A stretch of 36,238 nucleotides of DNA from Lachnospiraceae bacterium (GTDB taxonomy: Bacteria > Bacillota > Clostridia > Lachnospirales > Lachnospiraceae): the NCBI GenBank assembly GCA_017440045.1, contig JAFSIA010000024.1, forward strand, positions 1-36,238, given 5' to 3'. Shown here one piece after another: positions 5,090 through 36,238 of the stretch; the first letter of the stretch is position 1, and each line of letters opens with the position of its first letter. The notes beneath the pieces were generated by a model. It did no database searches, had not been told where the DNA came from, and saw only the letters and a list, made by a program, of their open reading frames with translations. A program made the position numbers and the translations under genes.

Positions 5090-5109
5090 ATATATTTTAA
5101 AAAAATTTA

Positions 5110-5137
5110 TTGATTTGTTGCGCTGATTTGTTATAAT
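5110..5137 (+). promoter_or_regulatory. promoter for the repeat-rich basic protein gene
   Basis: TTGATT at 5110-5115 and TATAAT at 5132-5137, 16-bp spacer, about 40 bp before the start. It indicates transcription separate from the DUF4097 operon, although no clear terminator is seen between them. Confidence 0.55.
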
Positions 5138-5179
5138 ATCAAGGAAAACAGATATGTGTACAAACAGGAGGAAATTTTT

Positions 5180-5770
5180 GTGGTTACTACAAACGCTGGA
5201 AACGGCAATGACAGCAGACCTAGAAACAATAAGAGCGTAGAGGGTGAAAAGAGAGAAAAGAGAATTTTCACTACAGACAATCGTAATAGTGATAAGTCTA
5301 AAGGGGATTTTAGACGTTCTAACGTGGAAGGTAGAGGTAATGGTGAGTATAAGCCAAGAACAAATAATGGTGAATATAAGCCAAGGACAAATAGTGGCGA
5401 ATTCAAGCCAAAGGCAAATAATGGTGAATTCAAGCCAAGAACTAACAATGGCGAATATAAGCCAAGAATGAATAACAATAACGCGTTTAATAACAGAGGT
5501 TATGATAAGGATAAAGACGAAGAAACTCCTGTTAGAAGATCAAAACCTAAGGTTGATAATAAGCCTAAGGAGCAACAGTCAGATAAGACACAGATTATCA
5601 ATAGAATCGAAAAAGAAAAAAAGGCGATGAAGAAAAAGCATACAGAGTCAAGAGGTGACTCAAGACCTGCTAAACATACAGCTAGACCAAAGAGAAGTGG
5701 AAATATTGACTGGACTAGAGAGTATGAGAACGATTCATATGATGATGATGATTTAGATATGTATTTATAA
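5180..5770 (+). CDS. basic, low-complexity protein with five 9-residue repeats, unknown function
   Basis: A 196-residue protein not recognised as a named family. GTG 5180 is preferred to an in-frame GTG at 5156 because AGGAGG at 5166-5171 sits 8 bases upstream. The sequence is hydrophilic and probably disordered: an Asn/Arg-rich N-terminus, five tandem copies of NGEYKPRTN-like units at nucleotides 5339-5473 (variants GEFKPKAN, GEYKPRMN), a Lys/Arg-rich region with IEKEKKAMKKKHTES, and a very acidic tail ending DDDDLDMYL. No signal peptide or membrane helix is present. Basic repeats with an acidic tail would suit RNA or ribosome binding, but that is inference. It has its own promoter and terminator. 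Confidence 0.8.
   Translation: MVTTNAGNGNDSRPRNNKSVEGEKREKRIFTTDNRNSDKSKGDFRRSNVEGRGNGEYKPRTNNGEYKPRTNSGEFKPKANNGEFKPRTNNGEYKPRMNNNNAFNNRGYDKDKDEETPVRRSKPKVDNKPKEQQSDKTQIINRIEKEKKAMKKKHTESRGDSRPAKHTARPKRSGNIDWTREYENDSYDDDDLDMYL
5339..5473 (+). repeat. five 27-bp tandem repeats inside a gene
   Basis: Five in-frame 27-bp units encode NGEYKPRTN variants. Copies differ mainly by single substitutions (E-Y/E-F, R/K, T/A/M), and all keep frame. Confidence 0.9.
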
Positions 5771-5794
5771 AGATGGATATGAAATGTATCTCGT

Positions 5795-5835
5795 AAAGCA
5801 GAGGGACTTACCATAAAGGTAGGTCCTTTTTGCTT
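5795..5835 (+). terminator. terminator after the repeat-rich basic gene
   Basis: AAAGCAGAGGGACTTACC pairs, with wobble, with GGTAGGTCCTTTTTGCTT around a 5-base loop, with a T5 run inside the descending arm. It lies 25 bases after the stop codon. Confidence 0.75.
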
Positions 5836-5978
5836 ATATGCCAGGTTGTCGAGATTTGTATGACAGATTTTCTTGAAGGCATATATTGATTGATTTATAA
5901 TTTTAACGATTTAAGTAAATAATGGGGGGAATTATAATAAAAAACTGTAAAAATATTGTCGAAAAATAGTGTAAATGC

Positions 5979-6007
5979 TTGAAATATGGGGCTTTGTGTG
6001 ATATTAT
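5979..6007 (+). promoter_or_regulatory. promoter for the L,D-transpeptidase gene
   Basis: TTGAAA at 5979-5984, 17-bp spacer, TATTAT at 6002-6007, 37 bp before the start codon. The rest of the interval 5836-5978 shows no gene. Confidence 0.6.
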
Positions 6008-6043
6008 ACATTCGAATATGTCTATTTATTGCATGGAGGTCAT

Positions 6044-7243
6044 ATGAATAGAGTAGAGTTTCTTAAGAAATTCGTCGCCTTTAACAAGAGACATAAGGTG
6101 CCAAATGTGCTTATAAAAGCCCAGTTGTACGTTATTTTAGTAGTGTGTTTTATACATTATGCAATAGTTAAAGGTATAAGAGCGGTTAAAAATGCTATAT
6201 GTTATCCGTTCGTTAAGATGAGAAATTATATTAAACAGAATATTAGAGATATATTACAGCTTCAGTGTCTTGTTGCAACAATAGGAATATGTGTGCTTAT
6301 TGTTGGTCAGTATGGAAGCTTGCCGGTAGAACAGGAGCCATCAGGAGCACTTGCAGGTGAAACATATGTTGATGGCGAGTTTATGGGTGCAGATAGCAAT
6401 AAGGATGAGCTTATTGATGCACCTGTTAACGAGATGGCGACAGGCAGTGTTATTAACGGAGATGTGGAAGATAATACACAAAGTGAGACACAGGGAACAG
6501 ATGCAGTCAACAAGAATAATCCATATCCATATAAGGTTATGATAAACAGACTTGCAAACTGTGTAACTATCTACACTCTTGATGAGAATGGACAGTATAC
6601 GGTGCCATTTAAAGCTATGATTTGTTCAACAGGAGGAGATAATACTCCGCTTGGAACATTTAAGATTGGTACAAAATATGATTTCAAGACATTGTTCTAT
6701 AAATCATACGGACAGTATTGTTCAAGAATATATGGATCAATACTTTTACACTCATCGGGTAATAATAGTTTAAACAAGAATGATTTAAATGCTACAGATT
6801 TTAACAATCTTGGACTTAGTGTATCTCACGGTTGTATTAGACTTACAGTTGCTGATGCAAAATGGATATATGACAATTGTCCTTCGGGAACAGAGGTTGT
6901 AGTTTATGACAGTGAAAATCCGGGACCACTTGGAAAGCCGGAAAGCATAAAGGTTCCAGCAGGAACGAACTGGGATCCTACAGACCCTGATCCTGCAAAT
7001 CCATGGCATGAGAAACAGCCAAGTATAGAGACAGAGAGCTATAAGGTTCTCTATGAAAGTGATACTGTAGATTATTTTGCAGGTGTTAAGGCATATGATA
7101 CATGTGGAAATGATATTACAGAGGATGTTGTAGTAGAGGGTTATATAGATATAACTGTTCCGGGAGATTATGTTGTAAAGTATTCAGTTACAGACTTGCT
7201 TGGTAGAAAAGCTGAAGCAACCGTTATTTACACAGTAAAATAA
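6044..7243 (+). CDS. membrane-anchored L,D-transpeptidase (YkuD domain) with C-terminal Ig-like domain
   Basis: A 399-residue protein starting at ATG 6044 (GGAGGT at 6035-6040; the upstream TTG at 6029 has no such site). A basic cytoplasmic N-terminus with a hydrophobic stretch near 27-45 precedes a second membrane segment at about 75-95, then a Gly/Asp/Thr-rich linker. The YkuD catalytic domain runs from about 165 to 290 and carries the diagnostic SHGCIRL with catalytic Cys264 and His262, and an upstream HSSGNN segment. A C-terminal beta domain (about 325-399, ending GDYVVKYSVTD...AEATVIYTVK) resembles DUF5011-type Ig-like folds. L,D-transpeptidases form 3-3 crosslinks in, or attach proteins to, peptidoglycan; the topology puts the catalytic domain outside the membrane. 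Confidence 0.92.
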   Translation: MNRVEFLKKFVAFNKRHKVPNVLIKAQLYVILVVCFIHYAIVKGIRAVKNAICYPFVKMRNYIKQNIRDILQLQCLVATIGICVLIVGQYGSLPVEQEPSGALAGETYVDGEFMGADSNKDELIDAPVNEMATGSVINGDVEDNTQSETQGTDAVNKNNPYPYKVMINRLANCVTIYTLDENGQYTVPFKAMICSTGGDNTPLGTFKIGTKYDFKTLFYKSYGQYCSRIYGSILLHSSGNNSLNKNDLNATDFNNLGLSVSHGCIRLTVADAKWIYDNCPSGTEVVVYDSENPGPLGKPESIKVPAGTNWDPTDPDPANPWHEKQPSIETESYKVLYESDTVDYFAGVKAYDTCGNDITEDVVVEGYIDITVPGDYVVKYSVTDLLGRKAEATVIYTVK

Positions 7244-26757: not shown

Positions 26758-27863
26758 ACAAGATAGTATAATAGATTATGTATTAAAAAACCTGTTAGAA
26801 AAGAAGCAAAAAATAAAAATAGAAAAAAGCAAATTGAATAAGTATGCAGCAAAAATATATAGTAGGAAAAATAAGACGCATATATTAGATTTGGCATCAT
26901 ATGTGGTAATGTTTTTTAAAATTTGATATGTAAAGCACTGGAAACTCGTCCTGGTGAATTGGCAAAATATATGTGTGGATTAGCTAATAGTAACGGAGGA
27001 TACATAATCGTCGGTGTAGAAAAGGATAATGGTGTACTGAATGTTGTAGGGTTTCAAACTGAATTTAATATTCATACCGTTATGAGTTCTGCAATAAAAA
27101 AATAGAGGGTGTTGTCTGTTATGAATATGGCTATGTTAACATTGGAGAAAAAACTGTTTTTGCTGTAAAAGTTGAGAAATCACAACAGAAAGTATTGATA
27201 GACAATATATATTATTGTTATAAGAACAATGGTGTAGATGTTAAGGTGGATAAGGAAGAGAAAGGGATTTCAACGCTATTTATTTCGTATACAGAGTGTG
27301 ATGCTCCAATAGTGGACATTATTGAAGAAAAAATCAGTGAAAAATTGAAAGATAAGGTTAGAATATCTCGTTATACAGAATTGAAGTATAAAGATAGTTT
27401 TAAAGCTTTTATGGATACAATCCAAGATCATGATTTTGTATTAACTGTTGTAAGCGATACCTATCTTAAGAGCCAAGCTTGTATGTACGAGGTGGGTGAA
27501 ACTCTTAAGGACCATCATTATAAAGATAAACTTCTCTTTGTAGTATTGAGTGATAATGAAAGAAAATATTATGGAGAAGATGCACCAAAAAAAATCGGTG
27601 CAGATATTTATGGTGGTGCAGAAAATAGGCTTAAATATATTGAGTTTTGGAAAGAAAAGTATGATAAGCTAAATGAAATAATGATTAATATAGCCGATTA
27701 TGAAGCTACTAGTGAGGCTGCAAAAGACCTTAAAATTATTGGTCAAATTTACAGAAAGGATATGGGAGAATTCTTACAGTTTTTGTCTGATGAAAATGGA
27801 AAAAGTTTTCAAAAGTTGTATGAAAACGATTTTGCAGAAATAATTGAGTGGATAGAACCATAG
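26747..27863 (+). pseudogene. AlbA_2 (Schlafen-like)-TIR protein gene, broken by two frameshifts
   Basis: Three overlapping frames read as one protein of about 370 residues. Frame 2 (26747-26926) starts at ATG with AAAGGA 8 bases upstream and ends ASYVVMFFKI. Frame 1 (26923-27105) continues with the AlbA_2 signature GELAKYMCGLANSNGGYIIV GVEK. Frame 3 (27102-27863) carries the rest of the linker and a TIR domain. The breaks fall at a T6-A4 tract (26912-26921) and an A7 tract (27096-27102). The A7 lies in exact A_AAA_AAA phase with TAG next, so a -1 slip would join AlbA_2 to TIR. The start also overlaps the toxin fragment's stop, so the first 59 codons could instead be an immunity ORF. AlbA_2 and TIR proteins are both known in phage defence. 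Confidence 0.6.
27195..27863 (+). CDS. TIR domain protein (C-terminal part of the AlbA_2-TIR gene)
   Basis: The longest intact piece of the broken gene: 222 residues from a TTG without a ribosome site, so it is probably not translated alone. The TIR fold is visible: first strand STLFISYTECDAPIVDII, central DSFKAFMDTIQDHDFVLTVV, and the segment SDTYLKSQACMYEVGETL, whose Glu (codon 27489-27491) sits where TIR NADases have their catalytic Glu. A C-terminal helical extension of about 100 residues follows. TIR domains in bacteria degrade NAD or make cyclic ADP-ribose signals during phage defence; the catalytic Glu is retained here. Confidence 0.7.
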   Translation: MIDNIYYCYKNNGVDVKVDKEEKGISTLFISYTECDAPIVDIIEEKISEKLKDKVRISRYTELKYKDSFKAFMDTIQDHDFVLTVVSDTYLKSQACMYEVGETLKDHHYKDKLLFVVLSDNERKYYGEDAPKKIGADIYGGAENRLKYIEFWKEKYDKLNEIMINIADYEATSEAAKDLKIIGQIYRKDMGEFLQFLSDENGKSFQKLYENDFAEIIEWIEP

Positions 27864-27913: not shown

Positions 27914-27942
27914 TGGAAATTCGAGAAGTTATAAGGTATAAT
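27914..27942 (+). promoter_or_regulatory. promoter just outside the left inverted-repeat site
   Basis: TGGAAA at 27914-27919, 17-bp spacer, TATAAT at 27937-27942. The predicted start near 27949 lies directly before the 17-bp inverted-repeat site (27951) and reads toward the GNAT-2TM gene at 28053. Confidence 0.55.
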
Positions 27943-27950
27943 AAATGCAA

Positions 27951-27967
27951 GATAATCTGATATTATC
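27951..27967 (+). repeat. left 17-bp inverted-repeat site of the GNAT/methyltransferase cassette
   Basis: GATAATCTGATATTATC. Arms GATAAT and ATTATC flank the asymmetric centre CTGAT; on this copy the dyad extends to 10-bp arms (GCAAGATAAT / ATTATCCTGC, one mismatch). The exact reverse complement occurs at 29854-29870. Confidence 0.9.
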
Positions 27968-28052
27968 CTGCACATAAAAGGAAAAGAAAAAATGTCAGCC
28001 ATAGAGTAAATGGAGTTATTTGAAAATATTATTCGCTTTTTAGGAGAAGTAT

Positions 28053-29051
28053 ATGGAAACAACATACAGAATAAAACTTGTTACAAGTATAAAAGATAAG
28101 GATTTAACAGAAGCACTCGATATATATTTGCATACAGTAGATGAAAACTCCGAAACGTCTACTTCTCAGATTAGAGATTATATACAAAATAAATATGATG
28201 ATAATAGAAAAATGTTTTTTTATATATTGTATGTAAATGACATCGTAGTTGGTTTTGCGGAGTACGGCTACCTTCCGCAAAGTGAAGTTTTACTCATTGA
28301 TTATATATGTACTAACCCAAGAAATCATACATATTTTTATAATTTCTACCATATGTTATTTGAAGATATTAGTACAATTTTAAAGAAGAAAAATCACTTT
28401 ATAAAATATATTATTACAGAATTATCACTCAAAAAAGATAATGAAAATAAATATATTGATGTTGATAGCAATTACTTTAGACAATTGTTAACAATGGAAG
28501 ATTTTAAAATATTAAAAACACCATACTATCAACCATATTTCAATATTAAGCACGAGCTATCTATAATGGAATTTAATATTGCAATTAAACCTTTGTTGAA
28601 TGGGCTTTTCCCAAAAACAATAGTTGATGAAAACTTTTATTATGAAGTAATGACCGATATATATATGAATCACTATGCTTCTTGGTATGAAAAATATATG
28701 AATCCCGAACAAGTTAATAGTTTTTTTACTAACTTGCTAAAAAGAATGAAAAAAGAATTCACAGGAAAAATACAAATTGATAACATAACTTTAGTAAACT
28801 GTGTTTTGTTTCAAAATGGAATGTGCCAACAGATTTCAACCGAAAATATAACTTTAAAAAAGAAGAGAAGATACTGTATCAAACAATGGGGGATTCGTAT
28901 TCTTTGTCTTCTCTTCTCCGTTTTAACAGCTGTATTTTGTTATTTAGAAATCTTTAATCATGTAGTAACATTCATATGTTCACTGTTTACTATTCTTTCA
29001 TCAGTAATAGCACTTGTAGACTTTGTTAAAGAACGCATTTTTTCAAAATAA
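28053..29051 (+). CDS. GNAT-like N-terminal domain with two C-terminal membrane helices, uncharacterised
   Basis: A 332-residue protein with TAGGAGAAG before ATG 28053. Residues about 1-165 have the strand-helix order of a GNAT acetyltransferase: FYILYVNDIVVGFAEYGYL (central strands), then VLLIDYICTNPRNHTYFYNF (strand 4 and the region before the acetyl-CoA loop), though the R/QxxGxG/A loop is degenerate. A helical middle (165-270) follows, then two hydrophobic segments at about 281-301 and 304-322 separated by a short turn and a basic tail. Such a membrane-tethered layout is unusual for GNATs. The gene is convergent with, and overlaps by 26 bp, the methyltransferase gene, and both lie between two inverted 17-bp sites. 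Function is unknown. Confidence 0.7.
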   Translation: METTYRIKLVTSIKDKDLTEALDIYLHTVDENSETSTSQIRDYIQNKYDDNRKMFFYILYVNDIVVGFAEYGYLPQSEVLLIDYICTNPRNHTYFYNFYHMLFEDISTILKKKNHFIKYIITELSLKKDNENKYIDVDSNYFRQLLTMEDFKILKTPYYQPYFNIKHELSIMEFNIAIKPLLNGLFPKTIVDENFYYEVMTDIYMNHYASWYEKYMNPEQVNSFFTNLLKRMKKEFTGKIQIDNITLVNCVLFQNGMCQQISTENITLKKKRRYCIKQWGIRILCLLFSVLTAVFCYLEIFNHVVTFICSLFTILSSVIALVDFVKERIFSK

Positions 29052-29757
29052 GAATTTCATTGTGTGCTATAGAATATGAAAAAGGTTGCAGAAATTTATC
29101 AAATCTTGAATATTTTGCAGCCTTTTTTTCTGGTATACCAAGTCTAAATAATAATGACGACATACAATGAAATCGATATTTGTCTTCACAAACAAATTTG
29201 TAATATTCCGCTAGTTGAAGTACAAATTTTTCATTATACATCCATAAATAGTGTGTTTGATTATTATACTGATATGTTTGCATAAACAAGGTTTTTGAAT
29301 GTTTTTTGGTACAAAGAAATTCTGCACTATTTGCTCGCTCATATTCTAATACTAAAATACCATCTGGCTTTAAAATACGACTAAATTCGTTTAGTGATTT
29401 TTGAATATCTGCGTAATTAATTACACTTCCAACACATATAATGCAGTCAACAGAATTTTCAGATAATGGTATAGCTTCAACAGATGCAACCAAATAATTA
29501 TCAAATAAATCAACATATTCTTTTATTATGTCCATATATACAATAGTAGCATCTGTTTTATAAGTTGTTTTTCCGCATCCTGCATTTAATACAACTTGAG
29601 TATTTTTTAGTTTTAAGCTATCTAAATAATTCTGAACTTTGTTTTGCAAAATTTTATATGAAAAGGTATGCCATATATCATCGTTTGGCCAAGGTTCAGA
29701 AGTTTCATAATTTTCTTTGGCTGTATTTATTACTTTCTGTATATCATCTGTCTTCAT
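29026..29757 (-). CDS. class I SAM-dependent methyltransferase
   Basis: A 243-residue enzyme on the minus strand, with TTAGGAGA upstream of ATG 29757. SAM-binding motif I is VVLNAGCGKT (about residues 56-65), followed by the acidic end of strand 2 (YMDII), motif III region SVEAIPLSENSVDCIICVG and the post-motif FSRILKPDGILVLEYERA. The C-terminal third, Tyr/Phe-rich, would form the substrate cap. It resembles Methyltransf_11/25-type small-molecule or lipid methyltransferases; the substrate cannot be read. It is tail to tail with the GNAT-2TM gene (26-bp overlap), inside the inverted-repeat cassette and next to a tyrosine recombinase gene. Confidence 0.85.
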   Translation of the reverse strand: MKTDDIQKVINTAKENYETSEPWPNDDIWHTFSYKILQNKVQNYLDSLKLKNTQVVLNAGCGKTTYKTDATIVYMDIIKEYVDLFDNYLVASVEAIPLSENSVDCIICVGSVINYADIQKSLNEFSRILKPDGILVLEYERANSAEFLCTKKHSKTLFMQTYQYNNQTHYLWMYNEKFVLQLAEYYKFVCEDKYRFHCMSSLLFRLGIPEKKAAKYSRFDKFLQPFSYSIAHNEILILKKCVL

Positions 29758-29853
29758 ATGCTGGTCTCCTAAAATAAATCGTACTTTTTCTAAATATTAA
29801 GAAATTCATTATGTCATTAGTAATACTTTCAATTTATAGTTGTAATGTTTATA

Positions 29854-29870
29854 GATAATATCAGATTATC
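29854..29870 (-). repeat. right 17-bp inverted-repeat site of the GNAT/methyltransferase cassette
   Basis: On the plus strand GATAATATCAGATTATC, the exact reverse complement of 27951-27967. It lies about 97 bp upstream of the methyltransferase start and 90 bp from the recombinase stop. Only the 5-bp centre (ATCAG here, CTGAT at left) sets orientation. Confidence 0.9.
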
Positions 29871-29910: not shown

Positions 29911-29954
29911 AAAAAGTAGTAGCAGATACCCTGGATTAAGAAGAATCTGCTACT
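29911..29954 (-). terminator. terminator of the tyrosine recombinase gene
   Basis: Perfect 10-bp stem AGTAGCAGAT / ATCTGCTACT with a 17-base loop; on the minus strand it is followed by an ACTTTTTCTT tail. A T-rich stretch on the other side could make it bidirectional. Confidence 0.7.
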
Positions 29955-29960
29955 TTATCT

Positions 29961-30884
29961 TTATTTTATTGTTATATTCTTCCTTGGATGTTTAGTGGTT
30001 AATATATCCTTTTGTTTAGCCATATTTACATGTGTATATATCTGTGTAACACTTATGGAGCTGTGACCAAGCATTTCTTGTATATATCTGATATCAACAT
30101 CCTCTTCAAGTAAAAATGTAGCAAATGAGTGTCTGAACATATGAGGAGTGATATGTAGAGAGATATTTGCAAACCTGCAATATTTCTCTATTGTTTTGCG
30201 TACTGATTGTTCGGATAAAGGATTGCCATAGTTATTGATAAACAGGTGGTTGCACTTATGGATTTCCTGCTCATATTCTGAGTAATAACCTATTAGTAAG
30301 CTAAAAACTTCATCATTTCCAATTTGTATTTTTCTCTCCTTTGAGCCTTTGCCGTGTATTAGTATTTCTCTATCGTGTGAATTGAAATTGTTAGGCGATA
30401 AATGGCATAATTCTGAAATCCTTATTCCGGTTGCAAAAAGTATCTCGATGACTGCTATATCACGAAGAATGTGTCTTTTTTGAATGGTTGTTTTAGCGTT
30501 GGAATAGTGTTGGTACATTGTCGTTAGCAGGGTTTCAATAGTATGTAAAGGTATTGTTTTAGGCAAAAGTATGGGTTCTCGGAATTTTATCTGTATTTTG
30601 TCAAATGGATTAATATCAATTATTTCCTTGTACATCATATAGTGAAGCAAAGCCTTCAATGAGGCAATCTTTCTTTTAACAGTTTTTGGTTTATATGTTT
30701 CGTGTAAGTTAATGATAAATTCTTCCAGTATGTAAGTTGAAATATCGCAAACCACTATATTTGAATACTTGGCGGCAAATTGGCTCAAGTCTATTTGATA
30801 GGCTTTTAATGTTTTGTGGTCTAAACGCTTTTGATTTTTGCAGAATATAAGATATTCGTTGATTGTGTTTTGTAATGTTTTCAT
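29961..30884 (-). CDS. tyrosine recombinase, XerC/D-like
   Basis: A 307-residue complete tyrosine recombinase on the minus strand, with AAAGGAG 9 bases before ATG 30884. An N-terminal SAM-like core-binding domain (1-100) is followed by the catalytic domain with all active residues: Arg155 (TGIRISEL), Lys179 (HGKGSKERK), His248-x2-Arg251 (HMFRHSFATF), His274 (LGHSSI) and nucleophile Tyr283 (QIYTHV). Its compact size, without an arm-binding N-domain, is that of Xer-type resolvases and DNA invertases rather than large ICE or phage integrases. It lies beside a pair of inverted 17-bp sites and points away from them. It may invert that cassette, or be the mobility gene of the island. Confidence 0.93.
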   Translation of the reverse strand: MKTLQNTINEYLIFCKNQKRLDHKTLKAYQIDLSQFAAKYSNIVVCDISTYILEEFIINLHETYKPKTVKRKIASLKALLHYMMYKEIIDINPFDKIQIKFREPILLPKTIPLHTIETLLTTMYQHYSNAKTTIQKRHILRDIAVIEILFATGIRISELCHLSPNNFNSHDREILIHGKGSKERKIQIGNDEVFSLLIGYYSEYEQEIHKCNHLFINNYGNPLSEQSVRKTIEKYCRFANISLHITPHMFRHSFATFLLEEDVDIRYIQEMLGHSSISVTQIYTHVNMAKQKDILTTKHPRKNITIK

Positions 30885-31229: not shown

Positions 31230-32651
31230 TTGAATAGAGTAGATGAATTGTTATTAGCTGAAGCCACATTAGTGGATTATAAGGAAGAGTTGGAAGAAAA
31301 GAAACCCAAAAGTTGGTTAAAGAGTATAAGTGCATTCGCAAATGGTATTGGTGGTTCTCTTTTGTATGGAGTGGTTGATAAGACAAAAGAAGTTAAGGGT
31401 ATATCAAATGTACAAGAATTCGGAGAAAAGATAAGCAGACTTATTGAAAAACATTTGATACCATTGCCTTCATTTGAATTAATACCACATATTTATAAAG
31501 GGAAGGAATTACTGGAAGTAAAAGTGAAATCTGGTGCAGATACACCATATTATGTTGAATTTGGTGGTGTAAAAGAAGCGTTTATTCGTAATGGAAATGA
31601 TAGTTTACCAGCACCGGACCATATGTTGCATGAATTGATACTTAAGGGAACACATCAATCTTATGATGCGATTGTATCAAAGGAACAAAAGAGAGATTAT
31701 AGTTTCACACTTTTTGAAGCAACTTATTTGGAAAGAACAGGAAGACATATAGAACCATCAGACTATGTGTCCTTCGGCTTGGCTACATCAGATGGATATT
31801 TGACAAATGCGGGAAAGTTGCTTGCGGATCAGCATCTTGTATATAATTCAAGGATTTTTTGTACAAGATGGAGTGGTAGTGAGAAAGGTTCGATATTTGA
31901 AGATGCAAAGGATGATAAAGAGTTTGAAGGAAATCTTATATATTTGAAAAAGAGTGCGGCGGATTTTGTAAAGGCAAACTCAAAGGTAAGATTTAAAAAA
32001 GATGCAGAATATCGTATTGATAAACCTGATTATGCAGAAAGAGCTGTAACCGAAGCGATCGTTAATGCCTTAATTCATCGTTCATATTTGTTACCGGGTT
32101 CGGAAATTCATATTGATATGTATGATGATAGATTAGAAATAGTATCACCTGGAGGTATGGTAGATGGTGGTATGATTCAAAGTAAAGACATTTTTAATAT
32201 AGAATCACAGAGACGCAATCCTGTGATTGCTGATTTGTTTCACCGTATGAGGTTTATGGAACGAAGGGGAAGTGGATTGCGAGATATTGTTGGAGAGACT
32301 GCAAAATTACCGGGATATTCGGAAGGGATGAAACCGGAATTTATATCAACTAATAGTAGTTTTAGGGTTATTATAAAAAATGTAAATTATAATTCTATAA
32401 TCAATGATGAACCAATAAATGAACCAATAAATGAACCAATAAAAGAACCAATAAAATTGAACGATAGAGAATTGTTTGTATTGCAAATGATGAAAAATAA
32501 TGCGGAAATTACTCGAAGGGAAATGGTAATAGAAATGCAATGTTCTGAAAGCACAGTAAAAAGAGCTATTGATGGATTAATTGAAAAGAATGTGATTCAG
32601 AGAATTGGCTCGAAAAAAAAGGGCAGTTGGCAAATCTTGAAAGATGTGTAG
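31230..32651 (+). CDS. AlbA_2 domain ATP-binding / winged-helix protein (divergent AAA-4 family)
   Basis: A 473-residue protein starting at TTG 31230, 8 bases after AGGAG. The N-terminal AlbA_2 (Schlafen-like) domain has SAFANGIGGSLLYGVVDK near 30-50. The middle is an HATPase_c_4-type region with AERAVTEAIVNALIHRSY (N box), then DDRLEIVSPGG and RRGSGLRDIV. The C-terminus is a winged helix (ITRREMVIEMQCSESTVKRA). A linker of four 12-bp repeats encodes EPINEPINEPIKEPIK. Proteins of this layout are common in mobile and accessory DNA and are presumed regulators or defence factors. It is a second AlbA_2 gene in the region, unrelated in overall layout to the broken AlbA_2-TIR gene. Confidence 0.88.
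   Translation: MNRVDELLLAEATLVDYKEELEEKKPKSWLKSISAFANGIGGSLLYGVVDKTKEVKGISNVQEFGEKISRLIEKHLIPLPSFELIPHIYKGKELLEVKVKSGADTPYYVEFGGVKEAFIRNGNDSLPAPDHMLHELILKGTHQSYDAIVSKEQKRDYSFTLFEATYLERTGRHIEPSDYVSFGLATSDGYLTNAGKLLADQHLVYNSRIFCTRWSGSEKGSIFEDAKDDKEFEGNLIYLKKSAADFVKANSKVRFKKDAEYRIDKPDYAERAVTEAIVNALIHRSYLLPGSEIHIDMYDDRLEIVSPGGMVDGGMIQSKDIFNIESQRRNPVIADLFHRMRFMERRGSGLRDIVGETAKLPGYSEGMKPEFISTNSSFRVIIKNVNYNSIINDEPINEPINEPIKEPIKLNDRELFVLQMMKNNAEITRREMVIEMQCSESTVKRAIDGLIEKNVIQRIGSKKKGSWQILKDV
32409..32456 (+). repeat. four 12-bp in-frame repeats (GAACCAATAAAT-type)
   Basis: Four copies encode EPIN/EPIK in the linker between the ATPase-like and winged-helix domains. Copy-number change would keep frame and alter linker length. 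Confidence 0.9.
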
Positions 32652-32956: not shown

Positions 32957-33035
32957 GGAACCGCCGTATACCGAACGGTACGTACGGTGGTGTGGGAGGT
33001 CGGTAGATAAAATAATTATCTACCACCTACCCGAT
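32957..33035 (+). mobile_element. 3' end of a group II intron (domains V and VI)
   Basis: Domain V at about 32958-32992: outer stem ACCGCCGTA/TACGGTGGT with one wobble pair, inner stem TACC/GGTA with GAAC loop, a two-base CG bulge, and the catalytic triad read as CGC. Domain VI follows with GGTAGATAA/TTATCTACC and the expected unpaired A near CCACCTACCC. The intron should end at CCGAT, about 33035 (AY end). Domains I-IV are missing, so the intron is dead. Confidence 0.8.
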
Positions 33036-33462
33036 TCTCAAAGATACTTATATTCAAAGAATATAAGTGCGGGTCTCGAAAGGCGCTTGAGAAGATAGAG
33101 CAGTCAGGAGATAATTGAGTACTAAGTGATGACTGCTGTGGCTGATATGAAGCAATGCTGCGTGCGTAGAGTGATTTTGATAGAAATGCAAGCAACAAAA
33201 ACCAACAAAAAGCAACAAAAACCAACAAAAACCAACAAAAAGCAACGAAAACCAACGACAAAAACCAATATAAATAAAGGAATAAAAGTGATATAATGAG
33301 GATGTCTAACAATGAATTTCTAATATATTCTTAATATCTGTCGATGAATAAAATAATAAGGGCATTTGGGATTAACGCATTTATGTATAACAAAGTGTTT
33401 TCTATCTTTTTATGAAGTAAAGAGTGGTTGCATTAAGTGCATTTTAAACTGTGTGTCTTTGA
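33036..33462. other. 427-bp region without a supported gene, containing 10-bp tandem repeats
   Basis: After the intron end the DNA has the short inverted pair CTTATATTC / GAATATAAG (33049-33068), the tandem repeat at 33191-33260, and a GTGATATAATG stretch near 33288 resembling a -10 element. Short ORFs here lack ribosome sites or are shadows of the repeat. Confidence 0.4.
33191..33260 (+). repeat. seven phased 10-bp tandem repeats, consensus ASCAACAAAA
   Basis: Seven consecutive 10-bp units alternate AGCAACAAAA and ACCAACAAAA; the last two carry substitutions (AACGAAA, AACGACA), and a partial unit follows. The strand is nearly free of T. The period equals one helical turn, so A4-5 tracts are in phase, as in bent DNA or iteron arrays. 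Confidence 0.9.
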
Positions 33463-34991: not shown

Positions 34992-36238
34992 ATGAGAAGA
35001 AATGGTAGAAGAACAATTACAGACAGAGTAATCGCTTTCGCAGCAACACTTGGTATTGCATTTAGTTCATGCAATATGCTTGGATATGCAGAAGAGAAAA
35101 TGGATGCTAAAGATAGCTATCAGGGATATGTGGTACAGCAGCAGCTTAACAAGTGGCTGGGAGATGTGAAGGATTATGGAATCGTTGCTAAAGAAGTAGC
35201 ATTATATGGAGATGTAGAATCTAATGTGGCAACAGATATGCTTTATCCAAATGGCCAGACAATGGGAGCATCATTTGCAAGCGGATATGTAAATGCAGGA
35301 TGTGACAATTACATACTTGATTTCGAGGGAGAGTTAAAGATTTCAAGAAGAGGAGATGCTTCATATGTGGAGTTCGGAATCTTTACAGGTCTTACAATAG
35401 ATGAGAGAACAGAGCAGAGAATTTATTTCGTTGGAAAAGATAGAAATCAGACATTTATTAATACAGATGATTATAAGGCAGTAAATATTTACAAGGCATC
35501 AAACTCACGTCAGCAGGTTGTACTTGATGTAGAAACAAGCTTAAACAGAATTAATAATTATTTTTCATCATATAAGCAGACTGGCAAAGAGACAGAGGGC
35601 GTTGTAAAGAATTACAAGGATATGAATAATTATATCGTTGATGTAACAGGCGTAGATGAGCAGGTATGCTTTGTAAATGTTAAGTTAAGCGAAATAATGG
35701 GTCAGCAGGGTGCCCTTAAGATTTATAAAGAAGACAATCAGATGATTGTTTTCAATGTGGAAGTAGATTCATTAGATTGGGAAGGATATGCACCAATTTA
35801 TAGAATGAATGTAAATGATAAGCAGGCTACAATCGATGATGCAGGAATTACAGATCAGATTATATGGAACCTTGCAGATTTTGAAGGTAAGGTTAGATTA
35901 AATGAAGCATCAGGTGTTGTAATAGCGCCAAAGGCAGATGTAATAATATCAGCTACAAGCAGAGGTAGAGTTATAAGCAAGAGTTTCTGTAATCCAAGTG
36001 GTGAGCTTCATTTCATATCACAGTTCATAGGATATGAGGAGGAAACAACAACTCCAGAGGAGACAACAACACCAGTAGAAACAACAACACCGGAAGAGAC
36101 AACAACACCAGTAGAAACAACAACACCGGAAGAAAGAACAACACCAGTGGAGACAACAACACCGGTGGAGACAACAACACCGGAAGAGACAACAACACCG
36201 GAAGAGACAACAACACCGGAAGAGACAACAACACCAGT
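34992..36238 (+). CDS. choice-of-anchor A family surface protein, 3' end outside the window
   Basis: At least 415 residues, open to the window end. GGAGA at 34981-34985 precedes ATG 34992 by 6 bases. The signal peptide is RRNGRRTITDRVIAF plus a hydrophobic core AATLGIAFSSC; the Cys in SSC could mark a lipobox, but the family is usually wall-anchored. Residues about 40-345 match the choice-of-anchor A domain: YGIVAKEVALYGDVESNVAT at the start, then IIWNLADFEGKVRL, GVVIAPKADVIISA and GELHFISQFIGYE at its end. From residue 351 on there are ETTTPE/V repeats to the edge, a typical wall-spanning Thr/Pro spacer. The anchor (sortase motif or helix) lies beyond the window. Likely role: cell-surface adhesion, inferred from family. 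Confidence 0.88.
   Translation, partial: MRRNGRRTITDRVIAFAATLGIAFSSCNMLGYAEEKMDAKDSYQGYVVQQQLNKWLGDVKDYGIVAKEVALYGDVESNVATDMLYPNGQTMGASFASGYVNAGCDNYILDFEGELKISRRGDASYVEFGIFTGLTIDERTEQRIYFVGKDRNQTFINTDDYKAVNIYKASNSRQQVVLDVETSLNRINNYFSSYKQTGKETEGVVKNYKDMNNYIVDVTGVDEQVCFVNVKLSEIMGQQGALKIYKEDNQMIVFNVEVDSLDWEGYAPIYRMNVNDKQATIDDAGITDQIIWNLADFEGKVRLNEASGVVIAPKADVIISATSRGRVISKSFCNPSGELHFISQFIGYEEETTTPEETTTPVETTTPEETTTPVETTTPEERTTPVETTTPVETTTPEETTTPEETTTPEETTTP
36042..36238 (+). repeat. 18-bp tandem repeats encoding ETTTP(E/V)
   Basis: About eleven 18-bp units (variants GAAGAGACAACAACACCG and GTAGAAACAACAACACCA) run to the window edge, so the count is a minimum. One unit carries ERTTP. All preserve frame. 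Confidence 0.95.

What the first reader, a model, noticed from the sequence alone, without database searches (positions are those of the whole stretch)
27951..29870. Possible invertible two-gene cassette bounded by inverted 17-bp recombination-like sites next to a tyrosine recombinase
Seen: GATAATCTGATATTATC at 27951-27967 and its exact reverse complement at 29854-29870 are the only two such sites I found in the window. Each is a 6-5-6 dyad, with arms like those bound by tyrosine recombinases, and the asymmetric 5-bp centre makes the two copies inverted. They enclose exactly two complete genes, a GNAT-2TM protein and a methyltransferase, arranged tail to tail. A promoter (27914-27942) lies just outside the left site and an intact recombinase gene just outside the right. 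Inference: inversion would put either gene behind the same outside promoter, an either/or switch between two effector genes. Known promoter or gene inversions by Xer-like recombinases in gut Firmicutes and Bacteroidota make this plausible, but I know of no description of this gene pair.
Basis: partly seen in the sequence, partly recalled or inferred. Interest (0 to 1): 0.82.

Follow-up and report, generated by a model that had tools for sequence, protein, structure and literature searches.

The report
Flippable two-gene switch in bacteria
Two genes that point at each other lie between two mirror-image DNA sites beside a recombinase gene that likely flips them, so that one outside promoter would drive one gene or the other; relatives carry the same kind of cassette with other gene pairs, several with immune-like genes facing enzyme-like genes, and three of those cassettes are found in both orientations.

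Summary
GATAAT-CTGAT-ATTATC (27951-27967) and its exact reverse complement (29854-29870) are the only exact copies in this 1.9-Mb genome. They enclose a GNAT-2TM gene and a methyltransferase gene that overlap tail to tail, beside an intact Xer-like recombinase gene. In two relatives (L025, L026) the same pair sits the other way round relative to the recombinase and to the outside promoter-like match. The recombinase family recurs with other tail-to-tail pairs between such sites: arms conserved, 5-bp centre different from locus to locus but matched, inverted, within a locus (26 inverted pairs, 0 direct). Three related cassettes are present in both orientations within one assembly: two in Eubacterium plexicaudatum ASF492, one holding Thoeris thsA/thsB. 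Some payloads are a STAND/TIR-type gene facing a biosynthetic-type enzyme. Flipping is thus shown for relatives and inferred for this locus. Exclusive expression from one outside promoter is the best reading but untested, and the Thoeris pair argues against strict exclusivity everywhere. Verdict: a new variant of gene-selecting DNA inversion, with a tyrosine recombinase and exchangeable payloads.

The parts
27914..27942 (+). promoter-like sequence (TGGAAA-17-TATAAT) just outside the left site, reading into the cassette
   Evidence: consensus match only
27951..27967 (+). left inverted site GATAAT-CTGAT-ATTATC (6-5-6 dyad)
28053..29051 (+). GNAT-fold protein with two C-terminal hydrophobic helices (332 aa); in this assembly it faces the outside promoter-like sequence
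29026..29757 (-). SAM-dependent methyltransferase (Methyltransf_11; 243 aa), overlapping the GNAT gene tail to tail by 26 bp
29854..29870 (-). right inverted site, exact reverse complement of the left one
29918..29954 (.). hairpin (10-bp stem) with T-rich tails on both strands between right site and recombinase gene; likely a terminator that insulates the recombinase gene from the cassette
   Evidence: (z -2.7 and -2.8 on the two strands); the pattern scan did not list it (its loop is longer than that scan allows)
29961..30884 (-). Xer-like tyrosine recombinase (307 aa), predicted to flip the cassette

Best explanation
The window holds two convergent genes between inverted 17-bp sites, and the Xer-like recombinase encoded next door is predicted to flip them, which would place either the GNAT-2TM gene or the methyltransferase gene behind one outside promoter. 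Shown by sequence: site pair, gene layout, open recombinase frame, opposite orientation in relatives, and coexisting orientations for three related cassettes. Inferred: that this recombinase acts on these sites (arms bound by recombinase, strand exchange across the 5-bp centre, which must match between partners); that this locus flips; that only the gene next to the outside promoter is strongly expressed. The lack of a promoter-like match in either leader, the tail-to-tail overlap and the hairpin before the recombinase fit mutually exclusive expression. On this reading the assembled orientation would be the GNAT-on state.
For: (1) Flipped relatives: in L025 and L026 the GNAT start lies next to the recombinase, in the window the MT start does; the best outside promoter-like match also faces the other gene there. 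(2) Matched centres: 26 inverted same-centre pairs and 0 direct ones in 62 loci; three permuted-arm controls gave 0 pairs, but they had only 0, 3 and 4 sites. (3) Both orientations in one assembly: E. plexicaudatum ASF492, 3.2-kb segment inverted with 0 substitutions and colinear flanks, and a 6.5-kb segment likewise (2 substitutions); in G516 the recombinase flank is joined to both thsB and thsA starts and the far flank to the thsB start. (4) In a search blind to sites, 5 of 61 genomes have a close recombinase; 4 of these 5 have an inverted pair within 3 kb of it. (5) 11 of 101 distinct sites lie within 150 bp of a contig start; about 0.5 expected if there are 100 contigs per 2.9 Mb. (6) Among the 120 best homologues each, the longest contig is 1730-1960 bp for 45 (GNAT) and 36 (MT) but 4 (recombinase, outside the segment). 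(7) In five cassettes both start codons lie 21-45 bp from the site, too close for a promoter of their own.
Against: No flipped junction was seen for this locus; its genome is 74% complete and no reads could be mapped. No assay links this recombinase to these sites. L024 has sites but no recombinase within 5 kb, and the flipping 6.5-kb segment of G332 has none in 18.5 kb. Recombinase loci without a site pair: L047, L048, L104/L157, L108 (one site), L114 (one site), L154 (contig ends 73 bp past the gene). In L156 the two genes are thsA and thsB of Thoeris, which act together (recalled), so strict either/or would disable the system. In L025, L115, L156, L098 and L140 the site abuts or overlaps the recombinase stop codon, so read-through into the near gene is possible. 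The promoter-like match is not always on the side away from the recombinase (L049, L086, L089), and 3 of 15 rows show none. At order level, single sites are barely more common than the reversed control, so single sites prove nothing.
Confidence: 0.8

Rival explanations
1. Promoter exchange rather than on/off: inversion swaps which gene is driven by the strong outside promoter and which is read from the recombinase transcript, setting the ratio of two co-working proteins.
For: In L025, L115, L156, L098 and L140 the site abuts or overlaps the recombinase stop codon; thsA and thsB, partners in one pathway (recalled), occupy opposite sides of one cassette.
Against: In the window, L026, L087, L090, L094 and L155 a hairpin lies between recombinase stop and site; several pairs join an immune-type gene and an unrelated enzyme.
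Confidence: 0.25
2. The cassette is a degenerate or locked relic here: relatives flip, but this locus no longer does because its inverted repeat is down to 17 bp.
For: Several related repeats are longer (39-143 bp) and no flipped junction was found for this genome.
Against: Exact repeats of 19-25 bp are found in other cassettes with an open recombinase frame (L086, L089, L090, L094, L115); both dyads are perfect, the recombinase frame is open, and the longest contig of a 94%-identical GNAT is 1929 bp against 1920 bp here.
Confidence: 0.15
3. The two sites are operators for a dimeric regulator of the two genes, not recombination sites.
For: Palindromic arms, and positions in the 5' leaders.
Against: Asymmetric centres matched within but not between loci, never direct; inversion exactly between the repeats in relatives.
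Confidence: 0.03
4. A small mobile element whose inverted ends were left by insertion; orientation differences reflect separate insertions.
For: The GNAT-MT pair is rare and scattered: 4 genome loci; in 299 family genomes only the own genome and a distant 26% match in G253; surroundings differ.
Against: The recombinase lies outside the segment; colinear flanks with only the segment inverted. Horizontal spread of the whole recombinase-cassette unit is compatible with the best explanation.
Confidence: 0.07

Closest known systems
Phage Mu G segment / P1 C segment (Gin, Cin)
   Same: Inversion of a segment with alternative genes in opposite directions, linking alternatives to one outside transcript (details recalled; passages read in PMC8987985 and PMC12529663)
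   Different: Serine recombinases and tail-fibre variants; here a tyrosine recombinase and two unrelated whole genes, with payload pairs that differ between loci
Invertons of gut bacteria, e.g. hCom2 survey PMC11892184 (passages read)
   Same: Inverted repeats with a nearby tyrosine-type recombinase, also in Clostridia (its inverton group 139 with invertase group 35)
   Different: The five examples whose coordinates I saw span about 255-670 bp, and the passages speak of embedded promoters; here 1.9-6.5 kb segments carry genes and the promoter-like sequence lies outside
hsdS inversion by PsrA/CreX and R64 shufflon by Rci
   Same: Tyrosine recombinase inverting coding segments (PMC7096588 and PMC11852207: search listings with the start of the abstract only; the rest recalled)
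   Different: Those exchange parts of a gene and make chimeric proteins; here the sites lie in leaders and genes stay whole
XerC/XerD
   Same: Recombinase is similar over its full length (TIGR02224 1.2e-67, TIGR02225 8.8e-67)
   Different: Scores 228.4 and 225.5 bits, below the curated cut-offs 335.15 and 329.6; 6-5-6 dyads unlike dif (recalled)

Membership tests
Gene-selecting DNA inversion (Mu G segment type) | Segment bounded by inverted recombination sites holding alternative genes in opposite directions | tested here: met
Gene-selecting DNA inversion (Mu G segment type) | Both orientations occur | tested here: met
   in relatives only; L025/L026 against window; not shown for the window's own locus
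Gene-selecting DNA inversion (Mu G segment type) | One outside promoter feeds whichever gene faces it | tested here: inconclusive
   promoter-like match with p <= 0.12 (cut-off chosen afterwards) on one side in 12 of 15 rows; no expression data
Gene-selecting DNA inversion (Mu G segment type) | Serine recombinase (Gin/Hin family) | tested here: not met
   recombinase is PF00589 tyrosine type, so it works like, but is not a member of, the Gin/Hin group
Inverton (invertible promoter) | Promoter lies inside the inverting segment and drives outside genes | tested here: not met
   segment is filled by two inward-pointing genes; none of the 17 promoter-like matches lies in a leader in the sense direction. 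A promoter of another type would have been missed
hsdS / shufflon type | Sites lie within coding sequence so inversion makes chimeric proteins | tested here: not met
   sites are 85 and 96 bp upstream of the start codons
XerC or XerD (chromosome dimer resolution) | Score above the curated cut-off | tested here: not met
   228.4 of 335.15 and 225.5 of 329.6 bits
Integrative element with direct att sites | Direct repeats flank the unit | tested here: not met
   0 direct same-centre pairs of this site within 0.6-9 kb
GNAT acetyltransferase fold (28053-29051) | GNAT fold | tested here: met
Thoeris (relative L156 only) | ThsA (SIR2-STALD) with ThsB (TIR) | tested here: met
   PADLOC ThsA 2e-84; TIR gene best PDC-S66 1.9e-14, ThsB 4.3e-6; Pfam STALD, SIR2_2, TIR_2

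The most novel reading that the evidence does not exclude
A general inversion platform of Lachnospiraceae and related families: a dedicated Xer-like recombinase and 6-5-6 sites with private 5-bp centres let one promoter choose between an intracellular immune gene (STAND/NLR-like, TIR, SIR2, Mrr) and an enzyme that remodels the surface or a metabolite, so that cells of one clone bet on different, mutually exclusive ways to meet phages; the GNAT-2TM/methyltransferase pair is one of many exchangeable payloads.
Probability: 0.4. Interest if true: 0.92.

Novelty: new variant of a known kind. Interest (0 to 1): 0.83.

Why it matters
It shows whole, unrelated genes, among them immune-type genes and even the two halves of a Thoeris system, held in tail-to-tail cassettes that flip and whose content differs from locus to locus. 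If expression follows orientation, clones would carry ready-made mixtures of cell states, and defence-gene annotation from one assembly would miss half of them. Private matched centres could let several cassettes in one genome flip without cross-recombining, which is directly testable.

Tried and rejected
Operator reading: rejected. Phage origin: no relative of recombinase or GNAT in viral contigs by peptide patterns; the phage, plasmid and E. coli record collections were not searched. PADLOC gave only weak matches for the window genes, and nothing for 7 of the 9 payload proteins (L087, L091, L086, L094, L115, L050, L054), which speaks against calling them known defence proteins. Promoter always on the side away from the recombinase: rejected (L049, L086, L089). 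L086/L089 against L090 first looked flipped relative to the recombinase, but relative to the promoter-like match they are in the same state, so I do not count them as flips. G253 C21/C39 fits one orientation and is not counted. G318 (two contig starts share 127 bp) and G371 (58 bp) may show both orientations, but a natural long repeat is not excluded because no third contig with that end was found; G285 C23 (42 bp of the same outer flank at both ends) is supportive only. The contig-length pile-up could also come from repeats longer than the assembler's word. Single sites: in 299 family genomes the pattern gave 130 rows in 78 genomes against 22 control matches in 16 genomes (control counted by me from the table); in 295 order genomes 19 sites in 16 genomes against 12 control sites in 11 genomes, so most single sites there may be chance. 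L023 first seemed to lack a repeat and a recombinase; one search shows its partner site, the 5' end of the methyltransferase gene and a 45%-identical recombinase about 60 kb away on the same contig. Three of the 21 distinct cassettes (L092 with an IS66 copy, L133/L134, L135) do not show the clean two-gene layout. The ten literature searches listed no paper that I recognised as describing such cassettes; I read listings, and passages of five papers only. Milman et al. 2023 (NAR, gene-altering programmed inversions) is not held (seen only in a reference list) and may contain some of them.

Full report
1. Observation. The two 17-mers are exact reverse complements at 27951-27967 and 29854-29870; 0 of 100 dinucleotide shuffles reached the 4 matches seen at up to 3 mismatches. 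They are the only exact copies in the window's 1.9-Mb, 74%-complete genome, and none of the 60 other genomes in that search has one. The arms GATAAT/ATTATC are a perfect dyad; the centre CTGAT is asymmetric, so the copies are inverted. Between them lie 28053-29051 (+) and 29026-29757 (-), overlapping by 26 bp. To the right an open recombinase frame (29961-30884, -) has its 3' end towards the site.

3. Same pair elsewhere. A scan of 84,980 species genomes gave four loci with the pair, tail to tail in each; the frames are broken in L026 and the methyltransferase is cut at its 5' end in L023. In L025 and L026 a recombinase of 56% and 59% identity lies beside the pair with its 3' end facing the GNAT start; in the window it faces the methyltransferase start. 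The inverted repeats are 67 bp (L025), 127 bp (L026) and 39 bp (L024). L024 has no recombinase within 5 kb; its genome has one elsewhere, without a site pair (L047). In the genome of L023 (G329) a recombinase, a site with centre ACATA and the 5' end of the methyltransferase gene lie near 39-40.4 kb of contig C1, while the rest of the pair and the inverted partner site (51 identical bases) lie at 100.9-102.7 kb; a roughly 60-kb insertion into the methyltransferase gene is the simplest reading. The best outside promoter-like match faces GNAT in the window (p 0.04) and the methyltransferase in L026 (p 0.01) and L025 (p 0.10); p is against 100 single-base shuffles of the flank.

4. General system. 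Recombinases of 45-83% identity lie near other site pairs. Over the 62 loci that I analysed together (737 kb; many of them chosen because they hold a site), there are 100 sites at up to one mismatch, 26 inverted same-centre pairs 0.6-9 kb apart, 25 pairs with different centres, and 0 direct same-centre pairs; three permuted-arm controls gave 0 pairs but had only 0, 3 and 4 sites. The 26 pairs stand for 21 distinct cassettes: L026, L050 and L155 have two nested pairs each, and L049/L054 and L133/L134 are the same loci twice. Eighteen of the 21 show genes pointing inward from both ends (L026 and L055 with broken frames); L092, L133/L134 and L135 do not show it cleanly. Where measured, 13 of 16 gene pairs overlap at their 3' ends by 4-33 bp. 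A search blind to the sites found a close recombinase (E <= 1e-50) in 5 of 61 genomes; four (G000, G003, G020, G035) have an inverted pair within 3 kb of it, and in the fifth (G052, L154) the contig ends 73 bp past the gene. Other recombinase loci without a pair are L047, L048, L104/L157, L108 (one site) and L114 (one site). The pattern GGATAATNNNNNATTATC gave 130 rows (101 distinct sites) in 78 of 299 family genomes, against 22 matches in 16 genomes for the pattern read backwards. In 295 genomes of the order a stricter pattern gave 19 sites in 16 genomes against 12 control sites in 11, so single sites there are mostly uninformative; one pair (G516, another family) was checked and is a recombinase-linked cassette.

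5. Flipping observed. In the E. plexicaudatum ASF492 assembly (G332; its contig C1 is named), contigs C1 and C3 share colinear flanks (3100 aligned bp with 0 mismatches and 5 gaps; 7825 with 2 mismatches and 34 gaps), while the 3.2-kb segment between the repeats is inverted (0 mismatches, 6 gaps). Contigs C1 and C2 do the same for a 6.5-kb segment (2 mismatches, 56 gaps) whose two sites share the centre ATCTG; no recombinase of this family was found in that 18.5-kb stretch, so it may be flipped in trans. In G516, contig C9 joins the recombinase 3' flank to the thsB start at one end and to the thsA start at the other, and contig C15 joins the far flank to the thsB start. These three are direct. 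G285 C23, G318 and G371 are weaker. In one search, 11 of 101 distinct sites lie within 150 bp of a contig start; about 0.5 would be expected with an assumed 100 contigs per 2.9 Mb. Among the 120 best listed database hits each (of 171, 202 and 7999), the longest contig is 1730-1960 bp long for 45 GNAT and 36 methyltransferase entries but only 4 recombinase entries, close to the 1920-bp segment; long repeats alone could also cause this.

6. Expression logic (inferred). In L086, L088, L090, L091 and L094 both start codons lie 21-45 bp from the site, too close for a promoter of their own. In the window the leaders are 85 and 96 bp, and none of the 17 promoter-like matches lies in a leader in the sense direction. 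An outside promoter-like match with p <= 0.12 (a cut-off chosen after seeing the values) occurs on one side only in 12 of 15 rows, L049 and L054 being one locus and L091 having only one flank long enough; seven of the 12 are on the side away from the recombinase, four on its side. Hairpins lie between recombinase stop and site in the window (stem 29918-29927/29945-29954) and in L026, L087, L090, L094 and L155 (energies without shuffles). In L025, L115, L156, L098 and L140 the site abuts or overlaps the recombinase stop, so read-through could serve the near gene.

7. Payloads. Immune-type side: TIR plus a TPR protein with a weak NTPase match (L155), NB-ARC (L139), AAA with a weak Mrr match (L087, L091), weak TIR (L088), weak nSTAND6 (L115), weak ATPase_2 (L054). 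Facing enzyme side: D-Ala-D-Ala-ligase-like ATP-grasp (L155; weaker in L050, L086), SHMT-like (L139, L094, L049/L054), IspD plus carbamoyltransferase (L087), GT2 (L091), GT2 plus pyruvyl transferase (L088), ADH plus GNAT-SHMT fusion (L115). The partners of the enzymes in L050 and L094 had no Pfam match, that in L086 only a weak TPR, and PADLOC matched 2 of 9 payload proteins, both weakly. L156 holds ThsA (PADLOC 2e-84) facing a TIR gene, the clearest case against strict exclusivity. Whether immune genes are enriched over chance was not tested.

8. Comparison. PMC8987985 (passages read) states that inversions either link alternative genes to one promoter or flip a promoter; this case is of the first kind but with a tyrosine recombinase. 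The hCom2 survey PMC11892184 (passages read) reports a Clostridia inverton group tied to a tyrosine-type recombinase; the two examples of that group whose coordinates I saw span about 255 bp. PMC12529663 (passages read) reports a serine recombinase whose inversion blocks phage T2, a precedent for inversion in defence. The ten searches listed no paper that I recognised as describing this gene pair or such exchangeable cassettes; Milman et al. 2023 could not be read.

9. Verdict. Invertible cassette: strong for the family, inferred for this locus. Either/or expression: likely, untested.

Noticed in passing
27195-27863: TIR-domain gene (PF13676, 7.5e-10) just outside the left site.
   Followed up: no
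27945-27973: The left site with its flanks forms a 12-pair terminator-like hairpin with a T-rich tail on the minus strand, so it may also stop transcripts leaving the cassette leftwards.
   Followed up: no
31230-32651: SLFN/AlbA_2 plus HATPase_c_4 gene behind the recombinase.
   Followed up: no
L023 and L051 (G329:C1 40222 and 102659): A GNAT-MT cassette apparently interrupted by a roughly 60-kb insertion inside the methyltransferase gene; the two sites with centre ACATA remain inverted, 62 kb apart.
   Followed up: partly
L092 (G253:C38): A 4.8-kb contig bounded by the same kind of sites carries distant GNAT and methyltransferase relatives plus an IS66 transposase: a diverged, interrupted version of this cassette.
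   Followed up: partly
L156 7106-10698: Thoeris thsA and thsB genes face each other in an invertible cassette with junctions of both orientations assembled.
   Followed up: yes
L133/L134 (G332 C1 and C2): A 6.5-kb segment inverted between two contigs has the sites but no recombinase of this family nearby; it may be flipped in trans.
   Followed up: partly
L135 (G332:C4) 5094-7119: Site pair around repeat-rich surface-protein-like pieces, with one site inside an ORF; may make chimeric surface proteins.
   Followed up: no
L026, L050 and L155: Two nested site pairs with different centres at each end of one cassette.
   Followed up: no
36025-36234 and 33016-33312: Low-complexity repeats (PVLLSLPVLL-like and FVAFCWFLLV-like in minus-strand frames).
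   Followed up: no
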